Origin: a virus
Length of the DNA: 52,693 nucleotides
Direction: 5' to 3' (one strand)
IMG/VR virus record: IMGVR_UViG_3300024332_000118
Location: 1-52,693 of that record
Shown here piece by piece: positions 4,686 to 49,843 of this stretch. Every line of letters begins with the position of its first letter. Position 1 is the stretch's first letter. The notes beneath the pieces are model-generated. The model did no database searches, was not told the DNA's origin, and saw only the letters and a list, made by a program, of their open reading frames with translations. A program made the translations under genes and the position numbers.

Positions 4686-6367
4686 AAATTTTAGATTGTA
4701 CTCTTAGAGATGGAGGGTATTATACTAATTGGGATTTTGACATAACCCTAGTTAAGTCTATGATACTTAGTCTTATCCGTAATGGCGTTGACATAATAGA
4801 ACTAGGATACAAGTCACCTAAAAAAGGTGGGCCATTTAGAAAATGCAACGATGGTTTTATCAACCAATTTCTTGACTATACACATGATACTCAGATGGCG
4901 TTTATGATAGACGCTAAAGACTTTATCTCTGGTGAGTCAGTCAATTATGGTTTGCTAGATGATTGCATTAAACATAGAAGGCAATCACCGTTTTCTCTTT
5001 GTAGACTAGCTATTAAGATCAACGAAGTTCAGCAGTCTAAACTAATAGCAAAATATTTAATTGATAAAGGATATACAGTTTATATAAATCTGATGTGTAT
5101 TTCTTTACTAAAAGAATCACAGATAGCTTTATTTGTCACAGAATTACAAGGACATGCACATGGACTCTACTTTGCCGATAGTTTCGGCAATTTGCAACCG
5201 AGTCAAGTAAAAAATATTTGTAAGCTATATAGAGAACTAACTTCTTTACCATGTGGTATTCATTGCCATGATAATCAATCTTTAGCTTTTGCTAACTGTT
5301 TACAAGCTATAGATTCAGGATTTGACATTGCAGATGGCACAGTATGTGGTATGGGCAGAGGTGTTGGAAATGCCAGAACAGAACAGCTATTACTATATAA
5401 AAATTCTACCATCAGCAGTGGCATGGTAAATATAGTGAATAAATTCCAAACATTACAAAGACACTACAAGTGGGGATATAACAGTCTGTATATGATGGGT
5501 GGTATGAATCACATTCATCCTCTGTACCTACAAGACTTAACAGCATCCAATCTCACAAATCTAGACAAGCTAGAGGCTGCAAAAAAATTATTTAACAATA
5601 CAAAATATGACAAAGAATTATTGAGAAACTACAAAGACCAAAAGGCCGTAGTGGTAATACCAGCTAGATACAAGTCCACAAGATTTCCCGGTAAACCATT
5701 AGCCAAGATTAATGGCAAGCCTATGATATTGCATGTAGCAGAAAAAGCAGAGCAGGCAGTTGGTAAAAATTCCGTCTATGTAGCAACTGAAAACGAAATC
5801 ATATCAGAAATAGTCAAGGCTGCTGGCTATCATGTAGTTTTAACCTCTGATAATTGTGCTACTGGCACAGACAGGATTGCAGAAGCATCACTAGAAATAG
5901 ATGCAGATATATTTGTTAACGTGCAAGGCGATGAGCCTATGATTGATCCACAAGATATACTCAGAGCCATACAATGTAAGAAGGATAGTCCTGATGCTGT
6001 AGTTAACTGTATGTCAAAGATAAACGCTGATGAAAATTATAATGATAAGAAAATACCAAAAGTAGTATGTAATAAGGAGAATTATTTACTTTATGCAAGT
6101 CGTAATGCACTACCGGGAAGTAAGAGTGGTCGTAGTGAAAACGTCAAAAAACAAGTGTGTATATATGCGTTTGGCAAAGATGAACTAATAGCCTTTCACC
6201 GTCAAGGTAAAAAATCACCACTAGAGTATCAAGAAGATATTGAAATACTTAGGTTTGTAGAGAATGGCATCCCAGTAAAAATGCTGGAGGTTAGTCATGT
6301 ATCTTATGCTGTAGACTACCCAGAAGATATTAAAGTTATAGAGGATAAGCTAAATGAAAATAGTTAA
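4682..6367 (+). CDS. Fusion: HMGL/DmpG-type aldolase + CMP-Kdo synthetase (KdsB)
   Basis: A 561-residue two-domain protein. Residues 1-300 are a DRE-TIM barrel metalloaldolase: LDCTLRDGGYYTNWDF at the start, FADSFGNL and GIHCHDN for metal binding, and ADGTVCGMGRGVGN, as in 4-hydroxy-2-oxovalerate aldolases. Residues 321-561 are a full-length KdsB-like cytidylyltransferase: VVVIPARYKSTRFPGKPLAK, VNVQGDEPMIDP, SPLEYQEDIE and VDYPEDI. The fusion could join pyruvate to an aldehyde to make a 3-deoxy-2-keto acid and then activate it with CTP. That would replace PEP-dependent KdsA. No frameshift is present. Domain calls are firm; the product is inferred. Confidence 0.85.
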   Translation: MKILDCTLRDGGYYTNWDFDITLVKSMILSLIRNGVDIIELGYKSPKKGGPFRKCNDGFINQFLDYTHDTQMAFMIDAKDFISGESVNYGLLDDCIKHRRQSPFSLCRLAIKINEVQQSKLIAKYLIDKGYTVYINLMCISLLKESQIALFVTELQGHAHGLYFADSFGNLQPSQVKNICKLYRELTSLPCGIHCHDNQSLAFANCLQAIDSGFDIADGTVCGMGRGVGNARTEQLLLYKNSTISSGMVNIVNKFQTLQRHYKWGYNSLYMMGGMNHIHPLYLQDLTASNLTNLDKLEAAKKLFNNTKYDKELLRNYKDQKAVVVIPARYKSTRFPGKPLAKINGKPMILHVAEKAEQAVGKNSVYVATENEIISEIVKAAGYHVVLTSDNCATGTDRIAEASLEIDADIFVNVQGDEPMIDPQDILRAIQCKKDSPDAVVNCMSKINADENYNDKKIPKVVCNKENYLLYASRNALPGSKSGRSENVKKQVCIYAFGKDELIAFHRQGKKSPLEYQEDIEILRFVENGIPVKMLEVSHVSYAVDYPEDIKVIEDKLNENS

Positions 6368-7028
6368 GAAGAGGTGGGGCGAAGAAAAAGTTATAGTCAA
6401 TAATGATTTGTATTGTGGTAAACTCTTAACAATAGTTCCACAATATCAGTGTTCTGTACATTATCACAAAAACAAGACAGAAACATTTCATATTATGGAA
6501 GGCTCCCTAGAGTTAGAATATTCTAGAAGTTTAGAAGTAGATGATTGGCTGAATAATAAGTTTGAGACAATAACATTAGAGGCTGGCGATACTTATGACA
6601 TAGAACCTCTTACAACACACAGATTTAGAACAGCAACAAGTAAATCCTGTAGCTTTATGGAGTTTTCCACGCATCACGACGACGAAGATTCCTATAGACT
6701 TATAGAAAGCAGATTTCTAGGAACCAATTACTATGTAGATATTGATCAAACTATCTGCATAACCCCGGAAAATCCTACAGATTATTCAAAAGCAGAACCT
6801 ATTAAAGAAAGAATAGATCAGATTAATAAGCTGTACGATCAAGGAAACTGTATTATGTATTGGACTGCTAGAGGCTCTCAGTCAGGTAGAAATTATCAAA
6901 CTCTTACTATTCGACAGTTAGACGATTGGGGATGTAAAAGACACGGAGTTCGTTTTGGCAAGCCTTCTTACGATATTTTTATAGACGATAAAACTATTCA
7001 TCCAGAGGAATTTTTTGATGAGCAATAA
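6354..7028 (+). CDS. Fusion: cupin domain + HAD phosphatase
   Basis: A 224-residue protein with two domains. Residues 1-120 form a cupin barrel: CSVHYHKNKTETFHIMEGSL gives the metal histidines and Glu, and EAGDTYDIEPLTTHRF gives the second cupin motif, similar to sugar isomerase or epimerase cupins. Residues 125-224 are a small HAD phosphatase: YYVDIDQTIC (first Asp pair), MYWTARGSQSG (Thr) and FGKPSYDIFIDDK (Lys and Asp pair). It overlaps the aldolase-KdsB gene by 14 bases. A phosphatase acting on Kdo-phosphate (KdsC role) or heptose bisphosphate (GmhB role) would complete either neighbouring pathway; which one is not decided. Confidence 0.8.
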   Translation: MKIVKKRWGEEKVIVNNDLYCGKLLTIVPQYQCSVHYHKNKTETFHIMEGSLELEYSRSLEVDDWLNNKFETITLEAGDTYDIEPLTTHRFRTATSKSCSFMEFSTHHDDEDSYRLIESRFLGTNYYVDIDQTICITPENPTDYSKAEPIKERIDQINKLYDQGNCIMYWTARGSQSGRNYQTLTIRQLDDWGCKRHGVRFGKPSYDIFIDDKTIHPEEFFDEQ

Positions 7029-7785
7029 ATGTGCAGTTATAGGAGATTCTTGTATAGACAAATACATATATGGTGTTTGTGAAAGAATATGTCCTGAAGG
7101 CCCAGTGCCAGTATTAAGTGTACAAAGTTTTACAGAGGCTCCCGGCATGGCAGCCAATACTCATGCAAATGCTAAAGTCTTTTGGCAGAATGAAGTAGAC
7201 CTTATCACTAACGACTCCAATATAGTCAGAAAAATTAGATATGTAGACAGTAAAACCAATCAACTATTACTGCGAGTAGATATTAATGATACTGTTCCCA
7301 GAGTAAACCATGATCTTCATTCTTTTCATCGCATCTTCTCTTATTCTTGCATTATAGTTTCTGATTACTGTAAAGGCTTTCTTATGGATAATGATATAGC
7401 ACACATAGGACATGCAGCACCTCTCACCGTGCTAGATACCAAGCGTAAGCTGACTAAAGAAATGATAGAAGGGTATACTTATATAAAACTAAACCAGCAA
7501 GAATTTGAGAACAACGCAGAGATAGTAAATAAAGATACTATTAAAAAGTTTATTATTACCAAAGGGAGCGAAGGCGTTATGTGGAATGAGAAAGAGTTTC
7601 CACCTCCTGTAGTATTGCAGACCTTTGATGTGTCTGGTGCAGGAGATGTTTTTACTGCTGCCTTTACTTATTCTATCCAATATTCTAATACAGTAGAAAA
7701 ATCTATATCCTACGCTCAAGAGTGTTGTAATAAGGTTATTAGGAAAAGAGGAACTTGTGTGTACGAAAACAGTTGTATGGACTAA
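7018..7785 (+). CDS. hldA: Heptose-7-phosphate kinase (HldE domain I-like, PfkB family)
   Basis: A 255-residue PfkB-family kinase whose N-terminus is HldE-like: VIGDSCIDKYIYGVCERICP then EGPVPVLSV. VSDYCKGFL, VLDTKRKL and the catalytic loop FDVSGAGDVFTAAF follow. HldE domain I phosphorylates D-glycero-D-manno-heptose 7-phosphate at O1. The usual GGAANVA motif reads APGMAANTHAN, and the substrate lid region is about 50 residues shorter than in bacterial HldE, so specificity may have shifted. The ATG at 7018 is chosen over TTG 7015. The 3' end overlaps the adenylyltransferase gene by 29 bases; in many bacteria the two are one protein. Confidence 0.78.
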   Translation: MSNKCAVIGDSCIDKYIYGVCERICPEGPVPVLSVQSFTEAPGMAANTHANAKVFWQNEVDLITNDSNIVRKIRYVDSKTNQLLLRVDINDTVPRVNHDLHSFHRIFSYSCIIVSDYCKGFLMDNDIAHIGHAAPLTVLDTKRKLTKEMIEGYTYIKLNQQEFENNAEIVNKDTIKKFIITKGSEGVMWNEKEFPPPVVLQTFDVSGAGDVFTAAFTYSIQYSNTVEKSISYAQECCNKVIRKRGTCVYENSCMD

Positions 7786-8164
7786 CGGGTGTTTTGACAT
7801 TATTCATGAAGGACACTTGTCATTATTTAAATATGCTAGGTCTTTAGGAGATGAACTATTAGTAGGTATAGATACTGATAGAAGAGTAAAAGAAAGGAAG
7901 GGAGATAGTCGTCCTGTAAATGATCAAAACAATAGGTTTATAAATCTACTGTCTCTTCCTGATGTGAAGAATGTCTTTATCTTTGACTCAGACACACAAC
8001 TTAGAAATTTGATAAAACAATTTAATGTTGACATCATGGTAGTTGGCGACGACTATAGAGACAAAGAGGTGATAGGCTCAGAATATGCAGATGACGTAAA
8101 GTTTTTCACTAAAAAAGCAGGATACTCAACTACAAAGATTATAAATGGATACAGTAAAATTTAA
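7757..8164 (+). CDS. hldC: Heptose-1-phosphate adenylyltransferase (HldE domain II-like)
   Basis: A 135-residue nucleotidyltransferase matching the C-terminal domain of HldE. It has the nucleotide-binding motif NGCFDIIHEGHLSLF (HxGH), the VKERKGDSRPVN segment, MVVGDDYRDKEVIGSE, and the family's terminal GYSTTKII. It would transfer AMP to heptose 1-phosphate to give ADP-heptose. A GTG start at 7757 is used, with AGAGGA just before it, inside the end of the kinase gene. It is distinguished from TagD/GCT-type cytidylyltransferases by the GDSRPVN and GYSTTKII segments. Confidence 0.83.
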   Translation: MCTKTVVWTNGCFDIIHEGHLSLFKYARSLGDELLVGIDTDRRVKERKGDSRPVNDQNNRFINLLSLPDVKNVFIFDSDTQLRNLIKQFNVDIMVVGDDYRDKEVIGSEYADDVKFFTKKAGYSTTKIINGYSKI

Positions 8165-8642
8165 CGACAAAGAATATTTATCAATACAAACCAATGGTAA
8201 CGCTGCTAGATTTACCCTCCCTTTTGCCCAAGAGATACTTTCCGGCAAAGGGCTAGACATCGGCTGTTCTAAAAAAGAATGGGCTTTTCCCGGTTCTACT
8301 CCTATTGATATAGTATTTGACGACCCTTATGACGCTATGAATCTACCTGATGAAATGTATAACTATATATTTTCATCTCATTGTCTGGAACATCTGAATG
8401 ATTGGGTAGGAGTATTAGACTACTGGCACAGTAAACTTAGAGTAGGTGGTATCTTGTACCTGTACCTACCTCATTACAGTCAAGAGTACTGGCGACCGTG
8501 GAATAATCGTAAACATATCAATATACTACAACCAGAATATCTTGACGGCTATTTTAAGGCCAATAGAAAATGGAGTCAGCATATCGTTACGCAAGGATAT
8601 GACCTTTACAATGCCTTTACTGCAATAGCGAGCAAACAATGA
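8145..8642 (+). CDS. SAM-dependent methyltransferase (class I)
   Basis: A 165-residue Rossmann-fold methyltransferase. Motif I is GKGLDIGCSKKEW, the acidic strand is PIDIVFDDP, and FSSHCLEHLNDW plus KLRVGGILYLYLPH are the usual type-11 motifs. It is shorter than typical (about 200-250 residues) and lacks a long N-terminal cap. It overlaps the adenylyltransferase gene by 20 bases and the next gene by 4, so it belongs to the sugar cassette and probably methylates a sugar or a small precursor. The substrate is not visible. Confidence 0.8.
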   Translation: MDTVKFNDKEYLSIQTNGNAARFTLPFAQEILSGKGLDIGCSKKEWAFPGSTPIDIVFDDPYDAMNLPDEMYNYIFSSHCLEHLNDWVGVLDYWHSKLRVGGILYLYLPHYSQEYWRPWNNRKHINILQPEYLDGYFKANRKWSQHIVTQGYDLYNAFTAIASKQ

Positions 8643-9337
8643 ACAAGATACAATTCTCTCATGGTGGTGGAGTCGGAGATGGACTGATGTTTTCTCCTCT
8701 CATCAAGGAATATTCTAAGACATACGAAGTTGGAGTAACTATTCCATCTAGTCTATGCAATAGTCTATTCCCTATATTATATAAAGATTATCCTAATGTG
8801 AAATGGCAGCAAGTTATTACTCCTCGTTCAAGAGAACTAACTTTTGCAGAAACAATAGAGCATTCTGGATGGAGAACTCTAGAGTGGGAAAGAGATTTTG
8901 AAAAAGAAGAAGAAGTATACAACATAGTCACCAAAAATACAGGTCGAGAATATGTTTTAGTTCATGAAAGAAAGTCAGATAACTGTGGTAGGAACATGCA
9001 GACTCTAAATAGAGACTGTATTATAAACAAAGACTTGCCAGTTATTAGCTTGCATCACATAACAAACATAAATATACTACACTATGCGACACTACTGAAT
9101 CGTGCAGCAGAATTACACTTCTATGAAGGGAGTTTCAGTAATTTAGCTGATTGCGTATTAGAAAGCAACATCCCTAAATTTGTACACTTATACTGTAAGC
9201 CTCACCTTTTCGACAAGAACATGGTTCCTCACAACCAAGTCGTACCATATATAGAAGAAGGGAAATGGCATAAACAAAAATGGGGTTATATTTACAAAAA
9301 TGGAGACTACAAAGATGTCCGATATTATAAACTTTGA
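8639..9337 (+). CDS. Putative GT-B glycosyltransferase (heptosyltransferase/GT9-like)
   Basis: A 232-residue protein with an N-terminal glycine turn typical of heptosyltransferases and related GT-B enzymes, FSHGGGVGDGLMFSPLIKEY. A C-terminal segment, NINILHYATLLNRAAELHFY then EGSFSNLADCVL, resembles the donor-site half of GT9/GT30-like proteins. At 232 residues it is about 100 shorter than bacterial heptosyltransferases. Its place just after the ADP-heptose genes makes a heptosyltransferase role plausible. The match is by pattern only and may be a more distant phage GT-B family. Confidence 0.5.
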   Translation: MNKIQFSHGGGVGDGLMFSPLIKEYSKTYEVGVTIPSSLCNSLFPILYKDYPNVKWQQVITPRSRELTFAETIEHSGWRTLEWERDFEKEEEVYNIVTKNTGREYVLVHERKSDNCGRNMQTLNRDCIINKDLPVISLHHITNINILHYATLLNRAAELHFYEGSFSNLADCVLESNIPKFVHLYCKPHLFDKNMVPHNQVVPYIEEGKWHKQKWGYIYKNGDYKDVRYYKL

Positions 9338-35384: not shown

Positions 35385-36836
35385 ATGAGTCTTGATGATA
35401 CGTCTGCTGAAAGAGCAGTATTATCAGGGATTTGCAAATACGCTGACGATATTTATTTGGAAATTGCTGATATTATTGATACTGAATGTTTTACTATAGA
35501 CAGCAACAAACTAATCTTTGAGTGTGTTAAAAATCTCTGTGAAGAAAATGTTCCTGCTATTGATCTAGCATCTATCCTATCTCAGGCAAAAGAATTGGGA
35601 TATGAAGATTATTTTAATAAGAAAGATGAACTCACACATCTACAAGCTGTATTAAATTTTCCAATACACAAAGACAATGTCAAGAAGTTTGCAGCTAAGA
35701 TAACCAAACTTAAAATAGCAAGACTACTAAAAGACCAGCTTAGAGATGCACAGAAAAGCATTAATAGTATCAATGGCTCAGAGTCTGTATCACATATTAT
35801 ATCTTTAGCAGAAGATCCGATATTTGATTTTACTAATCTGATCAGCAATGATGATGCGGCTCCTGAACAAATGTCTAAAGGGTTAGAAGAATATCTCCAA
35901 GAACTACAAGACAATCCTATAGATCAAGTAGGTATTCCCACGGGATTCCCTGTGTATGATCAGGCTATTGGAGGAGGTTTGAGAACAAGTACAATTAATG
36001 TAATTGCTGCTCGCCCTAAAACAGGTAAAACTCTGCTATCTGACAACATGGGTTTAAATATAGCTAAACGAGGCATCCCTGTCTTAAATATGGACACAGA
36101 GATGACAAAAACAGACCATATAAACAGACTTATAGCCATGATGACCGAAATAGAAATCAATAAAATTGAGACAGGCAAATTCGCTGACTCTCATGCTTCT
36201 TTGACAAAAGTAAAAGAGGCAGCAGCAGAGATCGCTGATATGAAATTTTATCACAAATCTATTGCTGGCAAACCATTTGATGAACAGATATCTATTATGA
36301 AAAGATGGTTGGTAAAAGATGTTGGTTTGAATGATGATGGAACTGCGAAACAGTGCGTAATATTTTATGACTACTTAAAACTGATGGACACACAAGGCTT
36401 GTCAGGAGATATGAAAGAGTATCAACTGCTCGGATTCATGATGACTAGCCTACATAATTTTGCGACGAAATACAAAATTCCTATTGTTGGATTTATTCAG
36501 CTTAATAGGGATGGTATCACAAAAGAAAGCACAGACACAGCTAGTGGTTCAGATAGAATCATCTGGCTTTGTAGCAACTTCACAATCTTTAAAAGAAAGA
36601 GCGATGAAGAAATATCAGAAGATGGCCCCAATTCTGGCAATAGAAAACTTATTCCTATTATCAGTAGGCATGGTGGTGGTCTTGATGATAATGATTATAT
36701 TAATTGTAATATGAAGGGTTGGTGTGCCAAAATTACAGAAGGCAAAACCAAACTTGAAGTAGCCAATAGTAGTTCCAATGAAGATGAAGGATTTGTAGTA
36801 GACAATGATGACAAAGAAGAAATCCCCTTCGCATAA
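35385..36836 (+). CDS. DnaB-like replicative helicase
   Basis: A 483-residue helicase with the DnaB layout: an N-terminal domain (TSAERAVLSGICKYADDIYL), a linker, then the RecA-like motor with VGIPTGFPVYDQAIGGGLR, Walker A ARPKTGKTLLSDN, LNMDTEMTKTDHINRLIAMM, CVIFYDYLKLMD (Walker B) and VGFIQLNRDG. It unwinds DNA at the fork as a hexamer. GGAGG is 7 bases before the ATG. The end overlaps the primase gene by 32 bases. Confidence 0.92.
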   Translation: MSLDDTSAERAVLSGICKYADDIYLEIADIIDTECFTIDSNKLIFECVKNLCEENVPAIDLASILSQAKELGYEDYFNKKDELTHLQAVLNFPIHKDNVKKFAAKITKLKIARLLKDQLRDAQKSINSINGSESVSHIISLAEDPIFDFTNLISNDDAAPEQMSKGLEEYLQELQDNPIDQVGIPTGFPVYDQAIGGGLRTSTINVIAARPKTGKTLLSDNMGLNIAKRGIPVLNMDTEMTKTDHINRLIAMMTEIEINKIETGKFADSHASLTKVKEAAAEIADMKFYHKSIAGKPFDEQISIMKRWLVKDVGLNDDGTAKQCVIFYDYLKLMDTQGLSGDMKEYQLLGFMMTSLHNFATKYKIPIVGFIQLNRDGITKESTDTASGSDRIIWLCSNFTIFKRKSDEEISEDGPNSGNRKLIPIISRHGGGLDDNDYINCNMKGWCAKITEGKTKLEVANSSSNEDEGFVVDNDDKEEIPFA

Positions 36837-37959
36837 TCAGCATCAGTTAAAAGCAATTTGTGATGCTTTATGTGATAATATAGAAGAGTTATTAGCTGCA
36901 TTAGATCTGCACGAATACAGAGATAATGGAAAGATGATAACAATGGCGTGTCCTATTCATGGTGGAGATAATGACTCTGCTCTAAATTTATATTATGAAG
37001 GAGACACATATAGAGGCAACTGGAAATGTAGAACTCATCAATGTGAAAAGATTTTTAAAGGTTCTATATTAGGCTTTATTAGAGGTGTTCTGTCGGCACA
37101 GAAATACGGATGGGAAAAAGAAGGAGATAAGATTGCACCATTCCCAGAAGTAATGTCTTTTGCCGAAAGCATAGTGTCTGATAAATTAGACGGTCAATTA
37201 GACGACATTAAACTAAGATCAGACAAGACTAATTTTTCTAGGATTGTTAACAATCTAGCGGTTAAGCCTTTAAGCGAAAAAAAGATTCCTAGAGAATCAG
37301 CAATAAGCAATATTGATATACCAGCAAAATATTATGTAGATAGAGGCTTCTCTAAAGATGCTTTACAAAAGTATGATGTAGGACTTTGTAGTAATCCTAA
37401 AAAGCCCATGTATAGCAGAGTTGTGGTTCCTATATACGACGACTCTGGGCAATACCTAGTAGGAGCAACTGGTAGAAGTATCTATAATAAATGTGATATT
37501 TGTGGGGCTTTCCATAATCCTAATGGTCAGTGTCCAGATAAAGAAAAGACATGGTTATATTCTAAATGGAAACATAGTCTTGGCTTTAAGTCTCAGAATC
37601 ATCTTTATAATTTTTGGTATGCTAAAGAACATATTCTAAAAGACAACTATGCAATCATTGTAGAAAGTCCCGGTAATGTATGGAGACTAGAAGAAAACGG
37701 AATACACAATAGCGTAGGTATCTTTGGATGTAATCTAAGCGACAGACAAAAACTGATCTTAGATTCTTCTGGTGCTATGACTCTGTTTATTATTACAGAC
37801 AATGATGAAGCAGGACACAAAGCAGCAGAGGAAATTAAAGAGAAGTGCGAAAATACTTATAGATTATTTTTCCCTAAAATCTCTAAATCAGATATTGGGG
37901 AGATGAGCAACGAAGAAATACAAAAAGAAATTAAACAGTATATAGAGGCGAACTTATGA
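36805..37959 (+). CDS. DnaG-type primase
   Basis: A 384-residue primase. The N-terminal zinc-binding part has MACPIHGGDN and WKCRTHQCEK. The middle contains a second Cys cluster, CDICGAFHNPNGQCP, inserted in the catalytic core. The Toprim domain shows AIIVESPGNVWRLEENGI with the conserved Glu, and LFIITDNDEAGHKAAEEI with the DxD pair. It is shorter than E. coli DnaG and lacks a clear helicase-binding C-domain. Coupled to the helicase by overlap. Confidence 0.88.
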   Translation: MMTKKKSPSHNQHQLKAICDALCDNIEELLAALDLHEYRDNGKMITMACPIHGGDNDSALNLYYEGDTYRGNWKCRTHQCEKIFKGSILGFIRGVLSAQKYGWEKEGDKIAPFPEVMSFAESIVSDKLDGQLDDIKLRSDKTNFSRIVNNLAVKPLSEKKIPRESAISNIDIPAKYYVDRGFSKDALQKYDVGLCSNPKKPMYSRVVVPIYDDSGQYLVGATGRSIYNKCDICGAFHNPNGQCPDKEKTWLYSKWKHSLGFKSQNHLYNFWYAKEHILKDNYAIIVESPGNVWRLEENGIHNSVGIFGCNLSDRQKLILDSSGAMTLFIITDNDEAGHKAAEEIKEKCENTYRLFFPKISKSDIGEMSNEEIQKEIKQYIEANL

Positions 37960-38546
37960 TTATAGCATTTGCGGGTAGAAAGCAATCTGGTAAAACTACT
38001 TCTGCTGAATACCTAGTAAAACAATATGAATCTACTCATGACTATGGAAAAGCACGTATATATAACTTTGCAGATAGTTTAAAACAAATGTGCATGGATA
38101 TATTTGGTATCAATTACAATCAGTGCTATGGTACTGACGATCAAAAAAATCAATTAGTAGATTGTCTTTGGCCTGATACAGATATTTGTATGTCGGCTAG
38201 AGAAGTCTTGCAATATGTCGGTACAGATATATTTAGAAAAATGCAACATAACGTATGGGCTAATGCCACTATGAGGTCTATTATAAAAGACAGATACAGC
38301 CTTGCTATTATTGCGGACTGTAGATTTCCTAATGAGGTAGAGACAGTTAAAAAGTTCGATGGTTTAGTGATTAAACTAAATAGAGACCTGTTTACATCAT
38401 CACACGCAAGCGAAGTGGCATTGGATGCCAAAAACTATGATTACTCTAATTTTGACTTGGTTGTTGATAGTCAAGAGATGGGTATCGACGAACGGAATCA
38501 AATCATCAAAACCTTCCTCCAAGAAAAAGGGGTGTTACCATTATAA
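37956..38546 (+). CDS. Deoxynucleoside monophosphate kinase
   Basis: A 196-residue P-loop kinase of the T4 gp1 type: Walker A AGRKQSGKTTSAEYL, a phosphate/base region ADSLKQMCMDIFGI, TDDQKNQ, SAREVLQYVGTDIFR, then IADCRFPNEVE and KLNRD. It converts dNMPs to dNDPs for DNA synthesis. Overlaps primase by 4 bases; the next gene's coding frame may begin inside its stop. Confidence 0.85.
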   Translation: MIIAFAGRKQSGKTTSAEYLVKQYESTHDYGKARIYNFADSLKQMCMDIFGINYNQCYGTDDQKNQLVDCLWPDTDICMSAREVLQYVGTDIFRKMQHNVWANATMRSIIKDRYSLAIIADCRFPNEVETVKKFDGLVIKLNRDLFTSSHASEVALDAKNYDYSNFDLVVDSQEMGIDERNQIIKTFLQEKGVLPL

Positions 38547-38584: not shown

Positions 38585-39583
38585 ATGTGTGAGCAGCAAT
38601 ATCTGTTTGACTATGTTATGGGATATAGATCTCCTTCTAATAAGAAGGCAGACAAAGGAACTATTGTACATAAAGTACTAGAAATATTAGCTTTTGTAAA
38701 ATTTCACCAACAAAAGAAAGATAAAACTTTTGTAGACGATATTGTGGGAGAGGTAGATGTAAATAATTATGATCTAGATGCAATTATAGATTCTGTTTAT
38801 ACATACTATACAACAGCCTTTAGTCATCATAAGTGGACAGCAACAGACGCTAGAGATTGTTCTAAGTGGACATACAAGGCTATCAATTACGAGGACGGAA
38901 TGTTTGATCCTAGAAAAAGAAACATTCTGTATCCTGAACAAAGGTTTGATATTACCATAGATAAGCCTTGGGCACATTTTAAGTATAAGACTAAAGATGG
39001 GCCACTAGAAGGACAATTATCTATTAAAGGTACAATCGACTTGATCACTCAGCCCAACGAGAACACTGCTGAAATTATAGATTGGAAAACAGGACGCAGA
39101 TTAAACTGGGCAACTGGGGAAGAAAAGACCCAAGAGAAACTAGAAGTAGACCCACAACTAATGATATATTACTATGCAGTAAAAAAGCTGTATCCACATA
39201 TAGATAATGTAATTGTGACAATCTATTTTATTAATGATGGTGGGCCATTTAGCGTGGCGTTTGACAAGAGCGATATGCACAAGACAGAACAGCTATTGAA
39301 AGACAAGTTTAAGAAGATACAGCATACTCTAAAACCGAGATTAAGCAAAAGCTGGAAGTGTACAAAATTATGCCATTACGGTAAGACGACTTTCGAGGGA
39401 ACAAATATTGAACCTATCACAGAATATAGAGATGGTATGGTATGCAATGTTGGCGACAAAATGACTAAATGTCAGCAGGTCGCTCACGACATTGGCCTCA
39501 AAGGTTATCAAGAAACAGTTGACGAGTACACTACTCCCGGCTACAATGTAGGACATTACAAGGCTCCGGGAAGTACAGAATGA
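38585..39583 (+). CDS. RecB/Cas4-type PD-(D/E)XK exonuclease
   Basis: A 332-residue nuclease: MCEQQYLFDYVMGYRSPSNK with KADKGTIVHKVLE (helical His), then the metal site GTIDLI ... AEIIDWKTGRR (Asp, then DxK) and PQLMIYYYAVKKLYP, as in RecB-family nucleases. Cysteines near the C-terminus (WKCTKLCHYG) could be part of an Fe-S or zinc site. Only this ATG is canonical, but the frame before it, TYFRSSSYNTHN, also looks like the family N-terminus, so translation may start at a non-AUG codon near 38543-38546. Confidence 0.85.
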   Translation: MCEQQYLFDYVMGYRSPSNKKADKGTIVHKVLEILAFVKFHQQKKDKTFVDDIVGEVDVNNYDLDAIIDSVYTYYTTAFSHHKWTATDARDCSKWTYKAINYEDGMFDPRKRNILYPEQRFDITIDKPWAHFKYKTKDGPLEGQLSIKGTIDLITQPNENTAEIIDWKTGRRLNWATGEEKTQEKLEVDPQLMIYYYAVKKLYPHIDNVIVTIYFINDGGPFSVAFDKSDMHKTEQLLKDKFKKIQHTLKPRLSKSWKCTKLCHYGKTTFEGTNIEPITEYRDGMVCNVGDKMTKCQQVAHDIGLKGYQETVDEYTTPGYNVGHYKAPGSTE

Positions 39584-41457
39584 AAAAATATATACCTTTG
39601 CATGTGCATACGCACTACAGCTTATTGGACGGATTAAGTAAACCTTCAGATATTGTTAAAAGATGTCAGAACATTGGAGTATCATCCTGTGCTATCACAG
39701 ATCATGGATCAATCTCTGGCACTGTACAATTCTATAGTAAACTTAAACAAAACGGAATCAAACCTATCTTGGGATGCGAGCTTTATGTACCCCAAAAAGA
39801 TTCCAAAGAAAAGAACAGAGAAAATGGTAAGTTAGACCATCTTGTAGTTCTAGCTAAGAATTTAGCAGGATGGAAGACTTTAATTAAGATTGTGTCTGAA
39901 AGCAATAATCCTGAAAGATATTACCATAAGCCCAGAATTGATATAGACACACTGGGAGATTTGCTTGACGGTAATCTAGTAGCTATCACTGGACATTTAG
40001 GGTCTACTTTAGCACGACAGATCATACCGGGAGATAAGATAAATGACGATTGGAAAAAGAAAGGTCAAGATCATATCTCTAAATTAACCAATGCTTTTGG
40101 TACAGGGAACGTGTTTCTAGAAGCACAACTAATAGACAAAGAGATGAATCCATCTCAGGTAGAACTCACTGACTGCATCAGAACTCTAGGTGGTCTTATG
40201 GACACCAAAGTTATATGCACACCAGATGCACACTATGCCAAGCAGTCTGACGCTGTAGACCAGAGAATATTGCTGTGTAATAATATGAAGATTACTTTAT
40301 CTCAGATTAACCATAAACTGCAAAATGGTCAAGACGTTCCGTTAAGCTGTTTTTTTAATAGTGATAAGTATTATATTCCATCACCAGAAGAAATGGCTGA
40401 ATTGCATACTCAAGAAGAAATAGAGAACACAATATATGTAGACAGTATGTGTGAAGAGTACGATATACTTAGTCAGCCTATCTTGCCACCGTTTAACTAT
40501 CCTGATAAATACAACTCTGACTCTGACTTTCTAAGAGATTTGTGTCGGTCAGGATGGAGACACAATAAGTTAAATAGTCTAAGCCAAGAAGATCAAGATA
40601 AATATGTTAAAAGATTAAAGTATGAATTTGATGTGTTGCATGGTGCTGGATTGTCTAGCTACTTTCTTATTGTGCAAGATATAGTTAATCATATTAAAGA
40701 GAACAAATGGCTACCGGGGCCGGGACGAGGCAGTGCTGCTGGCTGTTTGGTTTCATACTTATTAGGAATAACAGCTATAGACCCTATGCAATATGGTCTA
40801 ATCTTTGATAGATTTTATAATGCTGGTAGAAATACAAAAGATAGAGTATCTATGCCTGATATTGATATTGACGTACCTATTGACAAACGAGAACATATCA
40901 TTGAATATATTAAGTCTACTTATGGTAATGATAAGGTTTCTCAGATGTTGACATTTAATACCATGAAAGGTCGTGGTGCATTAAAAGATGTTCTTAGAGC
41001 ATACGGGAATTTGGCATTCGAAGACATGAATAAAATTACTAAAAATATTCCTGATGAAGCTAAGATATCTGATGAGTTGCAGGAAATGAAAAAGGAATAT
41101 GGAGAAGCGTCAATTATTAAGTGGGCTTTAGAAAACAGATCTAACGATCTAAAAGAGTGGTGTCATTTAGACGAAGAAGGTAAGCTGAATGGCCCCTTGG
41201 CAAAACGCTTTGAGCAGGCTATTAGACTAGAAGGGACTAAAACAAATCAGTCCAAACATGCTGCTGGAGTAGTCATAGCACCTGAAGCACTAACCAACAT
41301 TTGTCCTATGGTTTACGATACAAAGAATAAAAATTTGATAGCGGGCATGGAAATGCAAGACTTAGAAAATATTGGGGTAATTAAATTTGATATTCTAGGA
41401 GTTGCTGTCCTAGACAAAATTATGAATATTTCTGATATGTTAAAACAAGGAGTATAA
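39580..41457 (+). CDS. dnaE: DNA polymerase III alpha subunit, N-terminal half (PHP + palm)
   Basis: A 625-residue first half of a C-family replicative polymerase. The PHP domain starts LHVHTHYSLLDGLSKPSDIV with SCAITDHGS and CTPDAHYA. The polymerase core has GPGRGSAAGCLVSYLLGI and the catalytic MPDIDIDVPIDKRE, then HAAGVVIAPEALTNICPMVY and the third aspartate in VIKFDILGV. It stops at once after the palm, where a normal DnaE continues into the fingers. The rest is at 42312. No internal frameshift is seen, and no intein motif marks the break. Confidence 0.9.
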   Translation: MKKYIPLHVHTHYSLLDGLSKPSDIVKRCQNIGVSSCAITDHGSISGTVQFYSKLKQNGIKPILGCELYVPQKDSKEKNRENGKLDHLVVLAKNLAGWKTLIKIVSESNNPERYYHKPRIDIDTLGDLLDGNLVAITGHLGSTLARQIIPGDKINDDWKKKGQDHISKLTNAFGTGNVFLEAQLIDKEMNPSQVELTDCIRTLGGLMDTKVICTPDAHYAKQSDAVDQRILLCNNMKITLSQINHKLQNGQDVPLSCFFNSDKYYIPSPEEMAELHTQEEIENTIYVDSMCEEYDILSQPILPPFNYPDKYNSDSDFLRDLCRSGWRHNKLNSLSQEDQDKYVKRLKYEFDVLHGAGLSSYFLIVQDIVNHIKENKWLPGPGRGSAAGCLVSYLLGITAIDPMQYGLIFDRFYNAGRNTKDRVSMPDIDIDVPIDKREHIIEYIKSTYGNDKVSQMLTFNTMKGRGALKDVLRAYGNLAFEDMNKITKNIPDEAKISDELQEMKKEYGEASIIKWALENRSNDLKEWCHLDEEGKLNGPLAKRFEQAIRLEGTKTNQSKHAAGVVIAPEALTNICPMVYDTKNKNLIAGMEMQDLENIGVIKFDILGVAVLDKIMNISDMLKQGV

Positions 41458-41459
41458 GA

Positions 41460-41642
41460 ATGAAATTTAAAGACCTAAGAGTAACAGAAAAGTTTTATAA
41501 ACAAGGCTCTAATACAGAATATGAAAAAGTTCCTGAAAGACGAGTTTCTTGCTGCAAAGTTAAATGCAATGCAAAGACTCTTCCTGAAGGAAAAGAAATT
41601 GTATTCAAACCACTCGATGAGGTAACGAAAATTGAAAACTAA
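41460..41642 (+). CDS. Small hypothetical protein inside the split polymerase locus
   Basis: A 60-residue protein beginning MKFKDLRVTEKFYKQGSNTE, with a Cys cluster (SCCKVKCN) and a beta-rich end (EIVFKPLDEVTKIEN). A strong AAGGAG lies before its ATG. It sits between the polymerase first half and the exonuclease gene, overlapping the latter by 11 bases. Similar short proteins occur singly in phages, without known function. Confidence 0.6.
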   Translation: MKFKDLRVTEKFYKQGSNTEYEKVPERRVSCCKVKCNAKTLPEGKEIVFKPLDEVTKIEN

Positions 41643-42315
41643 TAAGATATGCGTATTTGACTTTGAGACTGATGGTAAAGACCCATACAAGTGCAGCCCT
41701 GTACAACTGGCATGTGTCATGATTGATCCTGAAAAATTGGACATTATTGACAACTCTGAGTTTAACATAAACCTTAAACCGGAAGCACTAGAAAAAGACC
41801 CTGATCATCAGTACGAAGTTGATCTGCTAGAATTTCACGCCAAGGCTCAGAAATGTACCTCTACTGAAGTTTTAGAAAACTGGAAACAATATCCTAACCA
41901 AAAACAATCTTGGCAACAGTTTGTTAACTATCTAGATAAATATCATACCAGAAGCACTCGCAAGAGTTTATTCTCTGCACCTATTGCGGCAGGATATAAC
42001 ATCTTGAGATTTGATATGCCTATCATAGATAGAATGGCACTAAAATATAAGAATGTTGGTAAAGATAAAAGCAATAACATCTTTCATCCTAGAGATAAGA
42101 TCGACCTGATGCACTTGATGTTTTTGTGGTTTGAGAATAATACGGACATTAAGAGTCTGTCTTTAGACAATATGAGAGATTATTTCGGTATGTCTAGAGA
42201 CAATGCTCACGATGCTTTAGGAGATGTTAGAGATTGTGCAGAAATCCTGACTAGGTTTTTGCGATTACATAGGAATCAGGCTAAGAAAATTAAATTTAGG
42301 AACGCTTTTGCATGA
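41632..42315 (+). CDS. DnaQ-like 3'-5' proofreading exonuclease
   Basis: A 227-residue DEDDh exonuclease: motif I ICVFDFETDGKDP, motif II AGYNILRFDMPIID, and motif III NAHDALGDVRDCAEILTRFL with the His and last Asp. It removes mismatched 3' ends, the epsilon role. A TTG start is used because no ATG or GTG is in frame before motif I and GAGG precedes it. It lies between the two polymerase halves and overlaps the second by 4 bases, so proofreading and polymerase parts are co-translated. Confidence 0.85.
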   Translation: MKTNKICVFDFETDGKDPYKCSPVQLACVMIDPEKLDIIDNSEFNINLKPEALEKDPDHQYEVDLLEFHAKAQKCTSTEVLENWKQYPNQKQSWQQFVNYLDKYHTRSTRKSLFSAPIAAGYNILRFDMPIIDRMALKYKNVGKDKSNNIFHPRDKIDLMHLMFLWFENNTDIKSLSLDNMRDYFGMSRDNAHDALGDVRDCAEILTRFLRLHRNQAKKIKFRNAFA

Positions 42316-43916
42316 CAAAATATTTTGAGTATAGTAAGTGTGGATGTAAATTCCCACTGGACGACAACGGTAATATTATATTTGATCCAGACATAACCAA
42401 GATTAATCTGAACTGTAAAGCCACATGGGATTTAATATCTAGTGGAAATACTAAAGGTTGTTTTCAGTTAGAGTCTAGGCTTGGTAGAAGTATGGCTAAG
42501 AAACTAAAGCCAAACTCTATTGAACAATTAGCTGCCCTAATCAGTATTATGAGGCCGGGATGTCTAGAAGCGGTGAGAGATGGTAAAACAGTTAGTACTC
42601 ATTTTATAGATAAAAAAAATGGTCTTGAATCTGTTGATTATTTTCATCCTGCTCTAGAACCTATCTTATCTAATACTTTTGGAGAAATGGTATACCAAGA
42701 ACAAGCTATGCAAATAGCTAAAGACTTAGCAGGTTTTGATTTGCAAGAAGCAGATATGCTGAGAAAAGCTATTGGTAAGAAAAAAGCAGATGAGATGGCA
42801 AAGCTAAAAGACAAATTCATCAAAGGATGTAAAAAACTAGGTATCATCTCTTCTGAACAAGCAGACCAAATTTTCTCTTGGATTGAGAAAAGCCAAAGAT
42901 ATAGTTTTAATAAAAGTCATGCTGTAAGCTATGCTATGAATGCTTACCTTTCTGCTTACGGCAAGGCTCACTTTACTAGAACTTTCTTCGCCTCTTATTT
43001 AAAGTTTGCTAAAGATAAGATAGATGCTCAACAAGAAATTAAAGAACTAATTCAAAACGCATCTCAAATGAACATCCATGTCTCTACTCCTGATATTAGA
43101 AAACTTAATAGATATTTTGTTTTAAGAGATAAGATTATTTACTTTGGTTTAACAGATATCAAGGGTGTGGGTCAGTCTGTATACAACAAACTAGAAACCC
43201 TTACAAATGAAAGCAAGCTAGAGACAATAGGCTGGGTAGACATGATATTTAATATCCTGCTTAATATTAACAGCAAGGCCGTTAAAGGAATGATATCGTC
43301 TGGGGCTATGGATCATTTTAAGATAACCAGAAACAGAATGTTGTTTGAATATAGCATAGCGGCTGACCTAACTAAAAGAGAAGCAGAACTATGCAGAAAA
43401 TATATAAAAGATAATAGTAAGCTGAAGAAAGTATTGAATGATTTATTAACGGATAAGATAAATATAAGAAGAAAAAACGCAGTAGAAAACCATATAAGAT
43501 CTATTGATAAGCCTCCATTCGATTTAGAAGATTCTATAGAGTGGATATCAGATCAAGAATATGAATTGCTAGGTTATTCTATATCATGTTCTAGAATAGA
43601 TATGTATGATGTCTCAAATACCAACTGCACTTGTGGGGAATTTTTAAAGAGTCATCAAAAAGAAGTTGTTATAGCAGGAGAAATAGAAGGTATAAATGTA
43701 GTAAAAACAAAGTCTGGGAAAAATAAAGGGGCAGAGATGGCTTTTTTGAGCATTTCTGACAATACAGGACTTTTAGATTCTGTAATAATATTCCCAGAAT
43801 CATACCGTACTTATCAGAATGTGCTTTTTGATAATAATATTGTTATAGTTAAGGGAACTAGGTCTAAGGAAAAAGATAGTCTGATAGCAGATAAAATTTT
43901 TATTCCGCAGGCTTGA
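42312..43916 (+). CDS. dnaE: DNA polymerase III alpha subunit, C-terminal half (fingers to OB fold)
   Basis: A 534-residue second half of DnaE. After a 32-residue extra N-terminus with a Cys pair (YSKCGCKFPLDDNG) it continues the alignment at SGNTKGCFQLESRLGRSM (normally GVFQLES), then IMRPGCLEAVRDGKTV, EMVYQEQAMQIAKDLAGFD, KAIGKKKADEMAKLKDKFIK, YSFNKSHAVSYAMNAYLSAY, the helix-hairpin-helix region (LTDIKGVGQSVYNKLE) and an OB-fold end (VVIAGEIEGINVVKTKSGKN). Together the halves total 1159 residues, the length of E. coli DnaE. They must assemble to give an active site. Confidence 0.9.
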   Translation: MTKYFEYSKCGCKFPLDDNGNIIFDPDITKINLNCKATWDLISSGNTKGCFQLESRLGRSMAKKLKPNSIEQLAALISIMRPGCLEAVRDGKTVSTHFIDKKNGLESVDYFHPALEPILSNTFGEMVYQEQAMQIAKDLAGFDLQEADMLRKAIGKKKADEMAKLKDKFIKGCKKLGIISSEQADQIFSWIEKSQRYSFNKSHAVSYAMNAYLSAYGKAHFTRTFFASYLKFAKDKIDAQQEIKELIQNASQMNIHVSTPDIRKLNRYFVLRDKIIYFGLTDIKGVGQSVYNKLETLTNESKLETIGWVDMIFNILLNINSKAVKGMISSGAMDHFKITRNRMLFEYSIAADLTKREAELCRKYIKDNSKLKKVLNDLLTDKINIRRKNAVENHIRSIDKPPFDLEDSIEWISDQEYELLGYSISCSRIDMYDVSNTNCTCGEFLKSHQKEVVIAGEIEGINVVKTKSGKNKGAEMAFLSISDNTGLLDSVIIFPESYRTYQNVLFDNNIVIVKGTRSKEKDSLIADKIFIPQA

Positions 43917-43940: not shown

Positions 43941-43979
43941 AAGGGACGTTAGTTAATTTTTTGAACAAGGAGTTTGATT

Positions 43980-44357
43980 ATGAATCAAGTAATTTTACGA
44001 GGGAATTTAACAAGAGATCCAGAACTTAGAACTATTGACAATGGTAGTAGATCTATTTCTGTGATCAATTTTACAGTCGCAGTTTCTAGAGAGTATACCA
44101 AGGCAAATGGGGTTAAGGACAAGATCGTGTCCTATATTCCTTGTGAGGCATGGGACTCTGGTGCTGAACTGATTGCTGAGTCGTTTAGGAAAGGCGATTT
44201 GGTTTTTGTTGAAGGATCAATGCGTAACGACAAGTGGGAAAAAGATGGCGTTAAGCATAACAGCATGAAGGTTAGAGTAAACAATTTCTCTAAACTAACA
44301 AAGCTAAAGAAGAATACCGATACTGCTAAGAACACTGAAGAAGCAGTTGCATTCTAA
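43980..44357 (+). CDS. ssb: Single-stranded DNA-binding protein
   Basis: A 125-residue SSB: MNQVILRGNLTRDPELRTID, INFTVAVSREY, YIPCEAWDSGAELIAESFRK and VFVEGSMRNDKWEKDG form the OB fold. The C-terminus is short, ending AVAF, with the preceding tail acidic, as needed to recruit partner proteins. ATG 43980 is used, 7 bases after AAGGAG; the upstream TTG at 43974 is rejected. It has its own strong promoter, fitting the high amounts of SSB needed in replication. Confidence 0.93.
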   Translation: MNQVILRGNLTRDPELRTIDNGSRSISVINFTVAVSREYTKANGVKDKIVSYIPCEAWDSGAELIAESFRKGDLVFVEGSMRNDKWEKDGVKHNSMKVRVNNFSKLTKLKKNTDTAKNTEEAVAF

Positions 44358-48667: not shown

Positions 48668-49080
48668 CCACTACAGAAGCAAAATATTATCATACTCAAT
48701 TAGCTATTGCCTGTACATCTTTTAATGCTGAAAGGTATAATGAAGATTGTTTTAAAGAATTCTTAGAGGTTATGCTAACAGATGATGATCAGTTTAGAAA
48801 AACTTATAGCTATTCTATATACAGTGATACTTTTAGTGTTCCTCATAATCTATTTGTTCCTAGATTTCATACTTACTATTTAAATAGTGATAAAAAGCAT
48901 GTCATAATTTTAGACGCAGGTATGATTGACTTGCCTATGGTTTATAATCATCATGAATACTATATCTATAACGATAAAGAACTATTTGCTAAGTTTGAAG
49001 AAAAGTATGACAATGTAACTCATATTCATTCCATTAAAGAAATTATAAAAGGATCTGAAGATGTATCAGCAACTGACTGA
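48664..49080 (+). CDS. Hypothetical protein
   Basis: A 138-residue soluble protein starting MTTTEAKYYHTQLAIACTSF. It is rich in aromatic residues and His (VPHNLFVPRFHTYYLN, MVYNHHEYYIYND). No motif is recognised. The ATG at 48664, after AGGTGTAAT, is chosen over the longer frame from 48583, which lies inside the GT2-like gene. Its end overlaps the nuclease gene by 20 bases. Confidence 0.55.
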   Translation: MTTTEAKYYHTQLAIACTSFNAERYNEDCFKEFLEVMLTDDDQFRKTYSYSIYSDTFSVPHNLFVPRFHTYYLNSDKKHVIILDAGMIDLPMVYNHHEYYIYNDKELFAKFEEKYDNVTHIHSIKEIIKGSEDVSATD

Positions 49081-49843
49081 CGACCAAAAGAGAAAAACTA
49101 TTGAAAAGCTATACACAAAACAGAAGCTATCTTATGCAGAGATTGCTGAACAGTTTGATACTTATGCTAACAGGATTAGAAGAGATGCTAAAAAGTTTGG
49201 TATTCCTGCTAGAGATAAAAGTCAGGCACAAAAAAATGTTTTAAAAATGGGCAAGTCTGCACACCCTACAGAAGGTAAAGAAAGAACTGAAGAAGAAAAA
49301 CATAAAATAGGTCTTGGTGTTTATAAAAACTGGGAAGAATGTGGAGAGGAAGAAAAACAAAACAGAAGGTTAAAGTCTAAGCAAAGATGGGAAGCATTAT
49401 CGGATACATATAAACAGAACATGCTTACTGCTGCACACAATGCCATTAGACAAACTAGTGCAGAAGGATCTAAACTAGAGAAGTACTTATTGGAAACTCT
49501 TGTAGACAATGGATATAAGCCGCAATTCCATAAGGAAGAAGTTTTAGCAAATACTAGACTGCAAATAGATATATATGTTCCAGAAAAAAACGTAGCCATT
49601 GAGGTAGATGGGCCTTCTCACTTTGCACCAGTATGGGGAGACCAATCTCTTAATAGGAACACCAAATCAGACCAAAAGAAAACAGGACTCATACTTGGCA
49701 AAGGAATGAAATTGATTAGAATAAGACATGAGTATGACTTCTCTGCTGCTAGAGCATTTCTGGTAGGAGAAAGACTCATAGACTTATTGCAAGGAATAGA
49801 TACAACTAAGGAAAAATTATTTAACATAGAGGACAATTCATGA
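49061..49843 (+). CDS. HTH + PD-(D/E)XK (VSR-like) nuclease, candidate homing endonuclease
   Basis: A 260-residue protein. Residues 8-50 are a helix-turn-helix (KQKLSYAEIAEQFDTYANRI), 65-120 look like NUMOD-type DNA-binding helices (AHPTEGKERTEEEKHKIGLG), and 165-225 are the nuclease: RLQIDIYVPEKNVAIEVDGP with Asp170, Glu181 and Asp183, then His187 and LIRIRHEYD. HTH or NUMOD elements plus a VSR-fold nuclease is the layout of phage homing endonucleases. It may move itself between phages, or act in repair beside the annealing protein. Confidence 0.72.
   Translation: MYQQLTDDQKRKTIEKLYTKQKLSYAEIAEQFDTYANRIRRDAKKFGIPARDKSQAQKNVLKMGKSAHPTEGKERTEEEKHKIGLGVYKNWEECGEEEKQNRRLKSKQRWEALSDTYKQNMLTAAHNAIRQTSAEGSKLEKYLLETLVDNGYKPQFHKEEVLANTRLQIDIYVPEKNVAIEVDGPSHFAPVWGDQSLNRNTKSDQKKTGLILGKGMKLIRIRHEYDFSAARAFLVGERLIDLLQGIDTTKEKLFNIEDNS

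What the first reader, a model, noticed from the sequence alone, without database searches (positions are those of the whole stretch)
39580..43916. Replicative polymerase alpha split between palm and fingers, proofreading exonuclease encoded in the gap
Seen directly: ORF 39580-41457 carries PHP and all three catalytic aspartates; ORF 42312-43916 resumes at the GCFQLES block and carries fingers, HhH and OB fold; their summed length is that of intact DnaE. Between them lie a 60-residue ORF and a DEDDh exonuclease. The second half has a new 32-residue N-terminus with a Cys pair, which could be an assembly tag. No intein residues are present, so the halves must associate non-covalently. The site differs from the known split-intein DnaE of cyanobacteria.
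Basis: partly seen in the sequence, partly recalled or inferred. Interest (0 to 1): 0.75.

Follow-up and report, generated by a model that had tools for sequence, protein, structure and literature searches.

The report
Two-piece phage replicative DNA polymerase
A large, uncultured group of phages makes its only recognisable replicative DNA polymerase (a bacterial-type DnaE) as two separate proteins that must fit together without being joined, with the gene for a 3'-5' exonuclease sitting between the halves; more distant relatives show the unsplit arrangement it probably came from.

Summary
At 39580-43916 a complete C-family polymerase (DnaE) is encoded as a PHP+palm protein (625 aa, all three catalytic Asp) and a fingers+HhH+OB protein (534 aa), separated by a 60-aa ORF and a DEDDh exonuclease. 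It is no misassembly or decay: in 81 of 81 non-redundant IMG/VR loci holding both sides of the break, the break is at the same point with the exonuclease between. Both halves look to be under strong purifying selection. None of 20 long relatives (92-232 kb) holds a second C-, A- or B-family polymerase. No intein or known intron lies at the break, so the halves most likely assemble non-covalently. More distant relatives (L188/L192) with the same gene neighbourhood have palm and fingers in one ORF and the exonuclease upstream, so the exonuclease probably moved into the palm-fingers loop. The same break occurs with other gap genes in L168 and Rossellomorea phage phiT1. Other relatives carry split inteins at two different DnaE sites. 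Split replicative polymerases are a known kind; a full-length DnaE broken here, clade-wide, around its exonuclease is a new variant. 'Proofreading' is inferred: by sequence the exonuclease is nearest ExoI.

The parts
39580..41457 (+). DnaE N half (625 aa): PHP domain and palm with all three catalytic aspartates (D427, D429, D604); ends in the palm-fingers loop without any intein sequence
   Evidence: Pfam PF02811 and PF07733; TIGR00594 476 bits and no intein model at E 0.1; aligns to E. coli alpha 5-565; Asp invariant
41460..41642 (+). 60-aa ORF of unknown function between N half and exonuclease; F..L..(x)F...Y.K....VSCCK motif
   Evidence: no family match; conserved ORF at this place in many relatives; weaker selection, NG86 dN/dS 0.2-0.3
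41632..42315 (+). DEDDh 3'-5' exonuclease (227 aa, TTG start), probable proofreading partner
   Evidence: PF00929; phrog_192 DNA polymerase exonuclease subunit; nearest NCBIfam exodeoxyribonuclease I; model pLDDT 87.7, fold matches Pol III epsilon, PolC-exo, ExoI, RNase T, DinG
42312..43916 (+). DnaE C half (534 aa): fingers, helix-hairpin-helix, OB fold; own ATG overlapping the exonuclease stop
   Evidence: PF17657, PF14579; aligns to E. coli alpha from 585; model pLDDT 83.4 matches DnaE structures, best E 2.7e-23
42312..42380 (+). new N-terminal segment of the C half (about residues 1-23) with CGC motif, predicted short hairpin
   Evidence: no homology to E. coli alpha before residue 27; CGC.F in 75 of 81 relatives; hairpin E4-6/E13-16
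43974..44357 (+). single-strand binding protein; downstream neighbour in split and unsplit relatives
   Evidence: PF00436; synteny
38585..39583 (+). PD-(D/E)XK nuclease; upstream neighbour, overlaps the N-half start; the exonuclease gene lies two small ORFs after this gene in unsplit L188
   Evidence: PF12705; synteny
35385..38546 (+). rest of the replication module: DnaB helicase 35385-36836, primase 36805-37959, dNMP kinase 37956-38546
   Evidence: same order in L188, L189 and the clade members examined

Best explanation
A gene-in-pieces replicative polymerase. An ancestral exo-dnaE pair (as in L188: PD-(D/E)XK nuclease - two small ORFs - exo - dnaE - ssb) was rearranged so that exo came to lie in the surface loop joining palm to fingers. 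This cut dnaE into two genes: PHP+palm, and fingers+HhH+OB with a new start and in most members a short CxC hairpin. The halves fold as separate domain blocks and dock non-covalently into a normal DnaE active site; the catalytic Asp are in the first protein and the nucleotide- and DNA-binding fingers in the second, so neither half alone should be an active replicase. The exonuclease is encoded in the same closely packed gene run and most likely serves as the proofreading partner. Shown here: the split, its conservation, relatives with a contiguous junction, no intein or known intron at the break, no second polymerase in long relatives. Inferred: non-covalent assembly, activity, proofreading, translational coupling, and the route and direction of the rearrangement.
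For: 81/81 non-redundant loci split at the same point with the exonuclease between; catalytic residues kept in both halves and the exonuclease; NG86 dN/dS about 0.02-0.10; one fingers match and one exonuclease per long relative, no family A or B polymerase; no intein model matches the window halves and no Rfam intron; overlapping start and stop codons conserved in most relatives; contiguous junction with exo upstream in syntenic L188/L192 and a tree placing L188 as sister of the split clade plus L189. Precedent: gp43A/gp43B of Aeromonas phage 25 co-purify with polymerase activity and split NrdA of Aeh1 is fully active (PMC2988022).
Against: No protein or activity data exist. L168, outside L188 on the tree, is also split, so the direction (fission in the clade, or early fission and re-fusion in L188) is not settled. 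The exonuclease resembles ExoI at least as much as epsilon by sequence. No clamp-binding motif was recognised and no DnaN found, so how the enzyme gains processivity is unknown.
Confidence: 0.85

Rival explanations
1. The halves are joined after synthesis by a trans-splicing split intein, as in cyanobacterial DnaE or 'fractured' phage genes.
For: Relatives carry split inteins with endonuclease genes in this very gene at PGRG|SAAG and FN(K/R)|SH.
Against: Neither window half carries intein sequence: N half ends in MLKQGV, C half starts with a 23-residue hairpin segment, and no intein model matches at E 0.1; none seen at this break in any of the 81 loci. L150 has inteins at the two other breaks but not at this one.
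Confidence: 0.02
2. An intron or other RNA-level event joins the two halves and the exonuclease lies in the intervening sequence.
For: Introns are known in phage polymerase genes, e.g. phage G and Bastille.
Against: No Rfam match in the window; the C half has its own conserved start and N-terminus, overlapping the exonuclease stop.
Confidence: 0.03
3. Misassembly or pseudogene: the split is an artefact or a decaying copy.
For: The window is a single metagenomic contig; contiguous relatives exist (L188).
Against: Same arrangement in 81 non-redundant loci from many samples, strong constraint, no intact copy elsewhere in long relatives.
Confidence: 0.01
4. The exonuclease is not a proofreading subunit but an ExoI-like recombination or repair nuclease that merely travels with dnaE.
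For: Best NCBIfam model is exodeoxyribonuclease I; ExoI tops the Foldseek list.
Against: Next to or inside dnaE in every locus of this lineage that was read through, L168 excepted; the only PF00929 protein in 20 long relatives; fold matches Pol III epsilon as well as ExoI (Z 17.4 against 17.2, tied); best PHROG is DNA polymerase exonuclease subunit.
Confidence: 0.3
5. The fission is older than L188: the common ancestor with L168 was already split, and L188 re-fused the halves and has the exonuclease outside.
For: Tree order (((clade, L189), L188), L168); L168's C half also starts with a CxC and an LEC before the fingers; the palm-fingers linker of L188 is shorter than in other contiguous DnaE (41 against 48-53 residues between KFD and FQLE, counted).
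Against: Needs a re-fusion and an exonuclease move; L168 is a long branch and its gap genes differ (RNase HII, no exonuclease).
Confidence: 0.35

Closest known systems
Split gp43A/gp43B (family B polymerase) of Aeromonas phages 25 and 44RR, and split NrdA of phage Aeh1 (PMC2988022)
   Same: An essential phage replication enzyme encoded as two adjacent genes whose products reassemble without splicing; shown active for phage 25 and Aeh1.
   Different: Other enzyme families; there the interrupting DNA is a homing endonuclease gene or untranslated sequence, here it is the exonuclease gene plus a small ORF, conserved clade-wide.
Split minimal Pol III alpha of group 2.2 jumbo phages (PMC7824862)
   Same: C-family polymerase in two proteins predicted to reconstitute the enzyme.
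   Different: That one is a minimal core without the other Pol III domains, encoded at distant loci and beside a family B polymerase; here full-length DnaE in one operon with no family B polymerase found.
Cyanobacterial split-intein DnaE
   Same: DnaE made from two genes.
   Different: There the break is in the fingers (next to the FNKSH motif; from general knowledge) and is repaired by trans-splicing; here it is in the palm-fingers loop and there is no intein.
Fractured genes with split inteins (described from environmental sequence; original paper not held, from general knowledge)
   Same: Relatives of the window have this at two other DnaE sites, with endonuclease genes between.
   Different: The window's break has neither intein nor endonuclease.
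Rossellomorea phage phiT1 DnaE, gp20/gp18 (PV767480)
   Same: DnaE split at the same palm-fingers loop, with a 49-aa ORF between.
   Different: No exonuclease in the gap; its N half is nearest to intact gut-phage DnaE (about 42%), so the event is probably separate.

Membership tests
Bacterial-type DnaE (C-family Pol III alpha) | PHP + palm with three Asp + fingers + HhH + OB | tested here: met
   shared between two proteins; OB hit below Pfam cut-off but seen in the fold
Bacterial-type DnaE (C-family Pol III alpha) | one polypeptide | tested here: not met
   two ORFs in all 81 loci
Bacterial-type DnaE (C-family Pol III alpha) | internal sliding-clamp-binding motif | tested here: inconclusive
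   simple pattern scan found no candidate in the expected region; no DnaN in 20 long relatives; divergent motifs and other clamps not tested
Split-intein (trans-spliced) DnaE | N- and C-intein sequences at the break | tested here: not met
   no intein model at E 0.1 in either half; same method detects inteins in relatives
Intron-interrupted gene | group I or II intron between the exons | tested here: not met
   no Rfam match at gathering threshold
Gene-in-pieces with reassembling products (gp43A/43B, NrdA-a/b type) | intact homologue in related phages, split inside a domain boundary, all active-site residues kept | tested here: met
   L188/L192 contiguous; residues kept
Gene-in-pieces with reassembling products (gp43A/43B, NrdA-a/b type) | halves co-purify and are active together | not testable with these tools
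   needs protein work
Split minimal Pol III alpha of jumbo phages | minimal core only, distant genes, family B polymerase present | tested here: not met
   PHP, HhH and OB present, same operon, no PF00136 in 20 long relatives
DEDDh 3'-5' exonuclease (DnaQ superfamily) | D, E, D, D and the H of the DEDDh motifs; RNase H-like exonuclease fold | tested here: met
   D10, E12, D128, H193, D198 invariant in 23 sequences; fold
Pol III epsilon (proofreading subunit) | binds alpha and edits its errors | not testable with these tools
   sequence nearest ExoI, fold matches epsilon as well

The most novel reading that the evidence does not exclude
The split is functional rather than merely tolerated: a three-subunit core (PHP-palm, exonuclease, fingers-OB) assembled from one coupled mRNA, with the CxC hairpin as a docking or metal-binding element, and with the palm-fingers loop a repeated fission site where phages place replication and repair genes (exonuclease, RNase HII, uracil-DNA glycosylase).
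Probability: 0.25. Interest if true: 0.75.

Novelty: new variant of a known kind. Interest (0 to 1): 0.62.

Why it matters
It is a natural case of a complete bacterial-type replicative polymerase cut between palm and fingers and kept that way across a deep phage clade. Contiguous and split states (L188 against the window) are found in one gene neighbourhood, so the origin of a multi-subunit polymerase by gene fission becomes testable. It offers a ready-made split site in DnaE. The same gene is a hotspot for split inteins, so covalent and non-covalent ways of living with a broken gene can be compared in one enzyme (L150 carries both).

Tried and rejected
Intein at the break: rejected (relatives serve as positive controls). 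Group I/II intron: no Rfam match. Misassembly or decay: rejected. Second polymerase: none of families A, B, C in 20 long relatives. DNA-pattern scans for an intact gene with the clade's MQDLE motif: one search used a pattern with a spacing error (one search showed that it missed its own controls); the corrected pattern recognises the clade and found no intact gene, but the intact L188 reads MGDLE, so that null was uninformative; a protein search found it. Scan of GTDB species genomes: only four distant hits, 28-31% identity. Named phages: N half at most 34% and C half at most 32% identical among the listed best matches, exonuclease no match, so that collection seems to hold no member of the clade. 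Searches with the phiT1 and L168 C halves gave few further relatives. A quick tree without L188 was superseded. The peptidase S77 search rang nowhere, controls included, and says nothing. The 2009 paper on fractured genes is not in the library.

Full report
WHAT IS THERE. The N half, 39580-41457 (625 aa), has PHP and DNA_pol3_alpha domains; the C half, 42312-43916 (534 aa), has fingers, HhH and a weak OB hit. Against solved structures the N half aligns to E. coli alpha 5-565 and the C half from alpha 585 onward. The break is therefore in the loop that joins palm to fingers, and only about 23-26 N-terminal residues of the C half are new. Between the halves are a 60-aa ORF without database match and a 227-aa DEDDh exonuclease. 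In the window the C-half start overlaps the exonuclease stop by 4 nt; in the survey 4- and 8-nt overlaps account for 47 of 81 loci.

IT IS CONSERVED. Protein searches of IMG/VR brought in loci that reduce to 87 non-redundant groups, of which 81 hold both the end of the N half and the start of the C half. All 81 are split, none is fused, and all have the exonuclease between. The gap is 846-894 nt except in two (L022, L136) that have an extra 227-aa ORF after the N half. That ORF looks like a homing endonuclease by eye, but Pfam found no nuclease domain in it. NG86 dN/dS between near relatives is about 0.02-0.10 for both halves and 0.2-0.3 for the small ORF; dS is saturated, so these are rough. 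The polymerase motifs are kept (PDIDxDV in 82 of 85 N-half sequences, KFD in 85 of 85), and the three Asp are invariant in the 30-sequence alignment. A strict text pattern for the exonuclease motifs matches 71 of 79. The C-half N-terminus carries CGC.F in 75 of 81; the six that lack it form one subclade. A Cys in C..TW follows in all 81. In the predicted structure the CGC segment is a short hairpin with pLDDT about 81-86.

IT IS THE ONLY POLYMERASE SEEN. In 20 long relatives (92-232 kb) there is one fingers match each and one palm match in 16; in three the palm match is in two pieces because of an intein, and in one (G018) the dnaE region lies at the contig end and no palm match was found. There is no family A or B polymerase, no DnaN, and a single PF00929 exonuclease, the one between the halves. 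These contigs are classed linear and may be incomplete, so absence is not proof.

WHERE IT CAME FROM. The most distant relatives, from the last scan, give the contiguous state. L188 and L192 (about 50% identical in the N region) have palm and fingers in one 894-aa ORF, the exonuclease immediately upstream with overlapping stop and start, and the same order of neighbours: DnaB, primase, dNMP kinase, PD-(D/E)XK nuclease, exonuclease, dnaE, SSB, glycosyltransferase. L189 (46-53%) is split, with a uracil-DNA glycosylase gene and a 100-aa ORF ahead of the exonuclease in the gap. L168 (about 31%) is split at the same loop, with an RNase HII gene and two small ORFs in the gap and no exonuclease match. 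The tree gives (((clade, L189), L188), L168), with 100/96, 100/100 and 100/98 support, and the long branch of L168 as caveat. So either dnaE was cut twice at this loop, with the exonuclease moving from upstream of dnaE into it, or it was cut once early and re-fused in L188. A tandem duplication of exo-dnaE followed by reciprocal loss would give exactly N-exo-C; this is conjecture. Outside this lineage Rossellomorea phage phiT1 has the same break with a 49-aa ORF in the gap, while its N half is closest to intact gut-phage DnaE. Bacillus phage KLEB27-3 is broken slightly further on, with an annotated HNH endonuclease between. The loop seems to be a recurrent fission site.

INTEINS IN THE SAME GENE. 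Several relatives carry split inteins at two other sites, PGRG|SAAG in the palm (L132-L137, L150) and FN(K/R)|SH in the fingers (L141, L150, L188), mostly with an endonuclease ORF between the pieces (PD-(D/E)XK-like, DUF559 or LAGLIDADG). L150 has both inteins and the plain palm-fingers break, so its DnaE comes from four ORFs. L173 shows a contiguous intein-like insertion at the fingers site. The contrast argues that the break in the window is of another kind: it is not bridged by an intein in any sequence examined.

MECHANISM. Two proteins of one closely packed operon must dock to bring the fingers over the palm. That such assemblies work is documented for other phage enzymes: gp43A and gp43B of Aeromonas phage 25 co-purify with polymerase activity, and split NrdA of Aeh1 is fully active (review PMC2988022). 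The exonuclease has a DEDDh fold that matches epsilon, PolC-exo and ExoI about equally, while its sequence is nearest ExoI. Its company with dnaE, in L188 too, makes a proofreading role the likelier reading, not a shown one.

NOVELTY. Split replicative polymerases in phages are known, for family B (above) and as a minimal Pol III alpha of group 2.2 jumbo phages encoded at distant loci beside a family B enzyme (PMC7824862). I found no description of a full-length DnaE split between palm and fingers around an exonuclease gene in the papers available; that library lacks most subscription journals. I rate it a new variant of a known kind, interest 0.62.

Noticed in passing
L150:4442-10632: DnaE of one relative comes from four ORFs: split inteins at PGRG|SAAG and FNK|SHAV plus the plain palm-fingers break; a LAGLIDADG ORF lies between the fingers intein pieces.
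   Followed up: partly
L132:7007-10096, L136:6822-9901: Split intein exactly at the conserved PGRG|SAAG motif of the palm, with a PD-(D/E)XK-like endonuclease ORF between the halves.
   Followed up: partly
L173:4042-8325: Contiguous intein-like insertion (about 290 aa, with an HNH-like stretch) at the FNK|SH site of an otherwise intact phage DnaE.
   Followed up: no
L168:2099-6533: DnaE split at the same loop with RNase HII, a coiled-coil-like and a zinc-ribbon-like ORF in the gap; the C half starts with CTC and LEC.
   Followed up: partly
L182:9056-11518: An 820-aa ORF with RCC1 repeats inserted between the small ORF and the exonuclease in the palm-fingers gap.
   Followed up: no
L022:5458-6141, L136:9935-10618: 227-aa ORF resembling a free-standing homing endonuclease directly after the N half in two relatives; no nuclease domain found by Pfam.
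   Followed up: partly
window 4682-9337: Run of sugar-metabolism-like ORFs (HMG-CoA-lyase-like/CMP-KDO synthetase-like fusion, sugar kinase-like, nucleotidyltransferase-like, methyltransferase-like), suggesting surface-sugar modification genes; read by eye.
   Followed up: no
window 49061-49843: Free-standing HNH / homing endonuclease (phrog_559, E 1e-14) about 5 kb downstream of the polymerase genes.
   Followed up: no
window 1428-2327: Subtilisin-like serine protease ORF next to a trypsin-like protease ORF (695-1447), unusual in a phage; read by eye.
   Followed up: no
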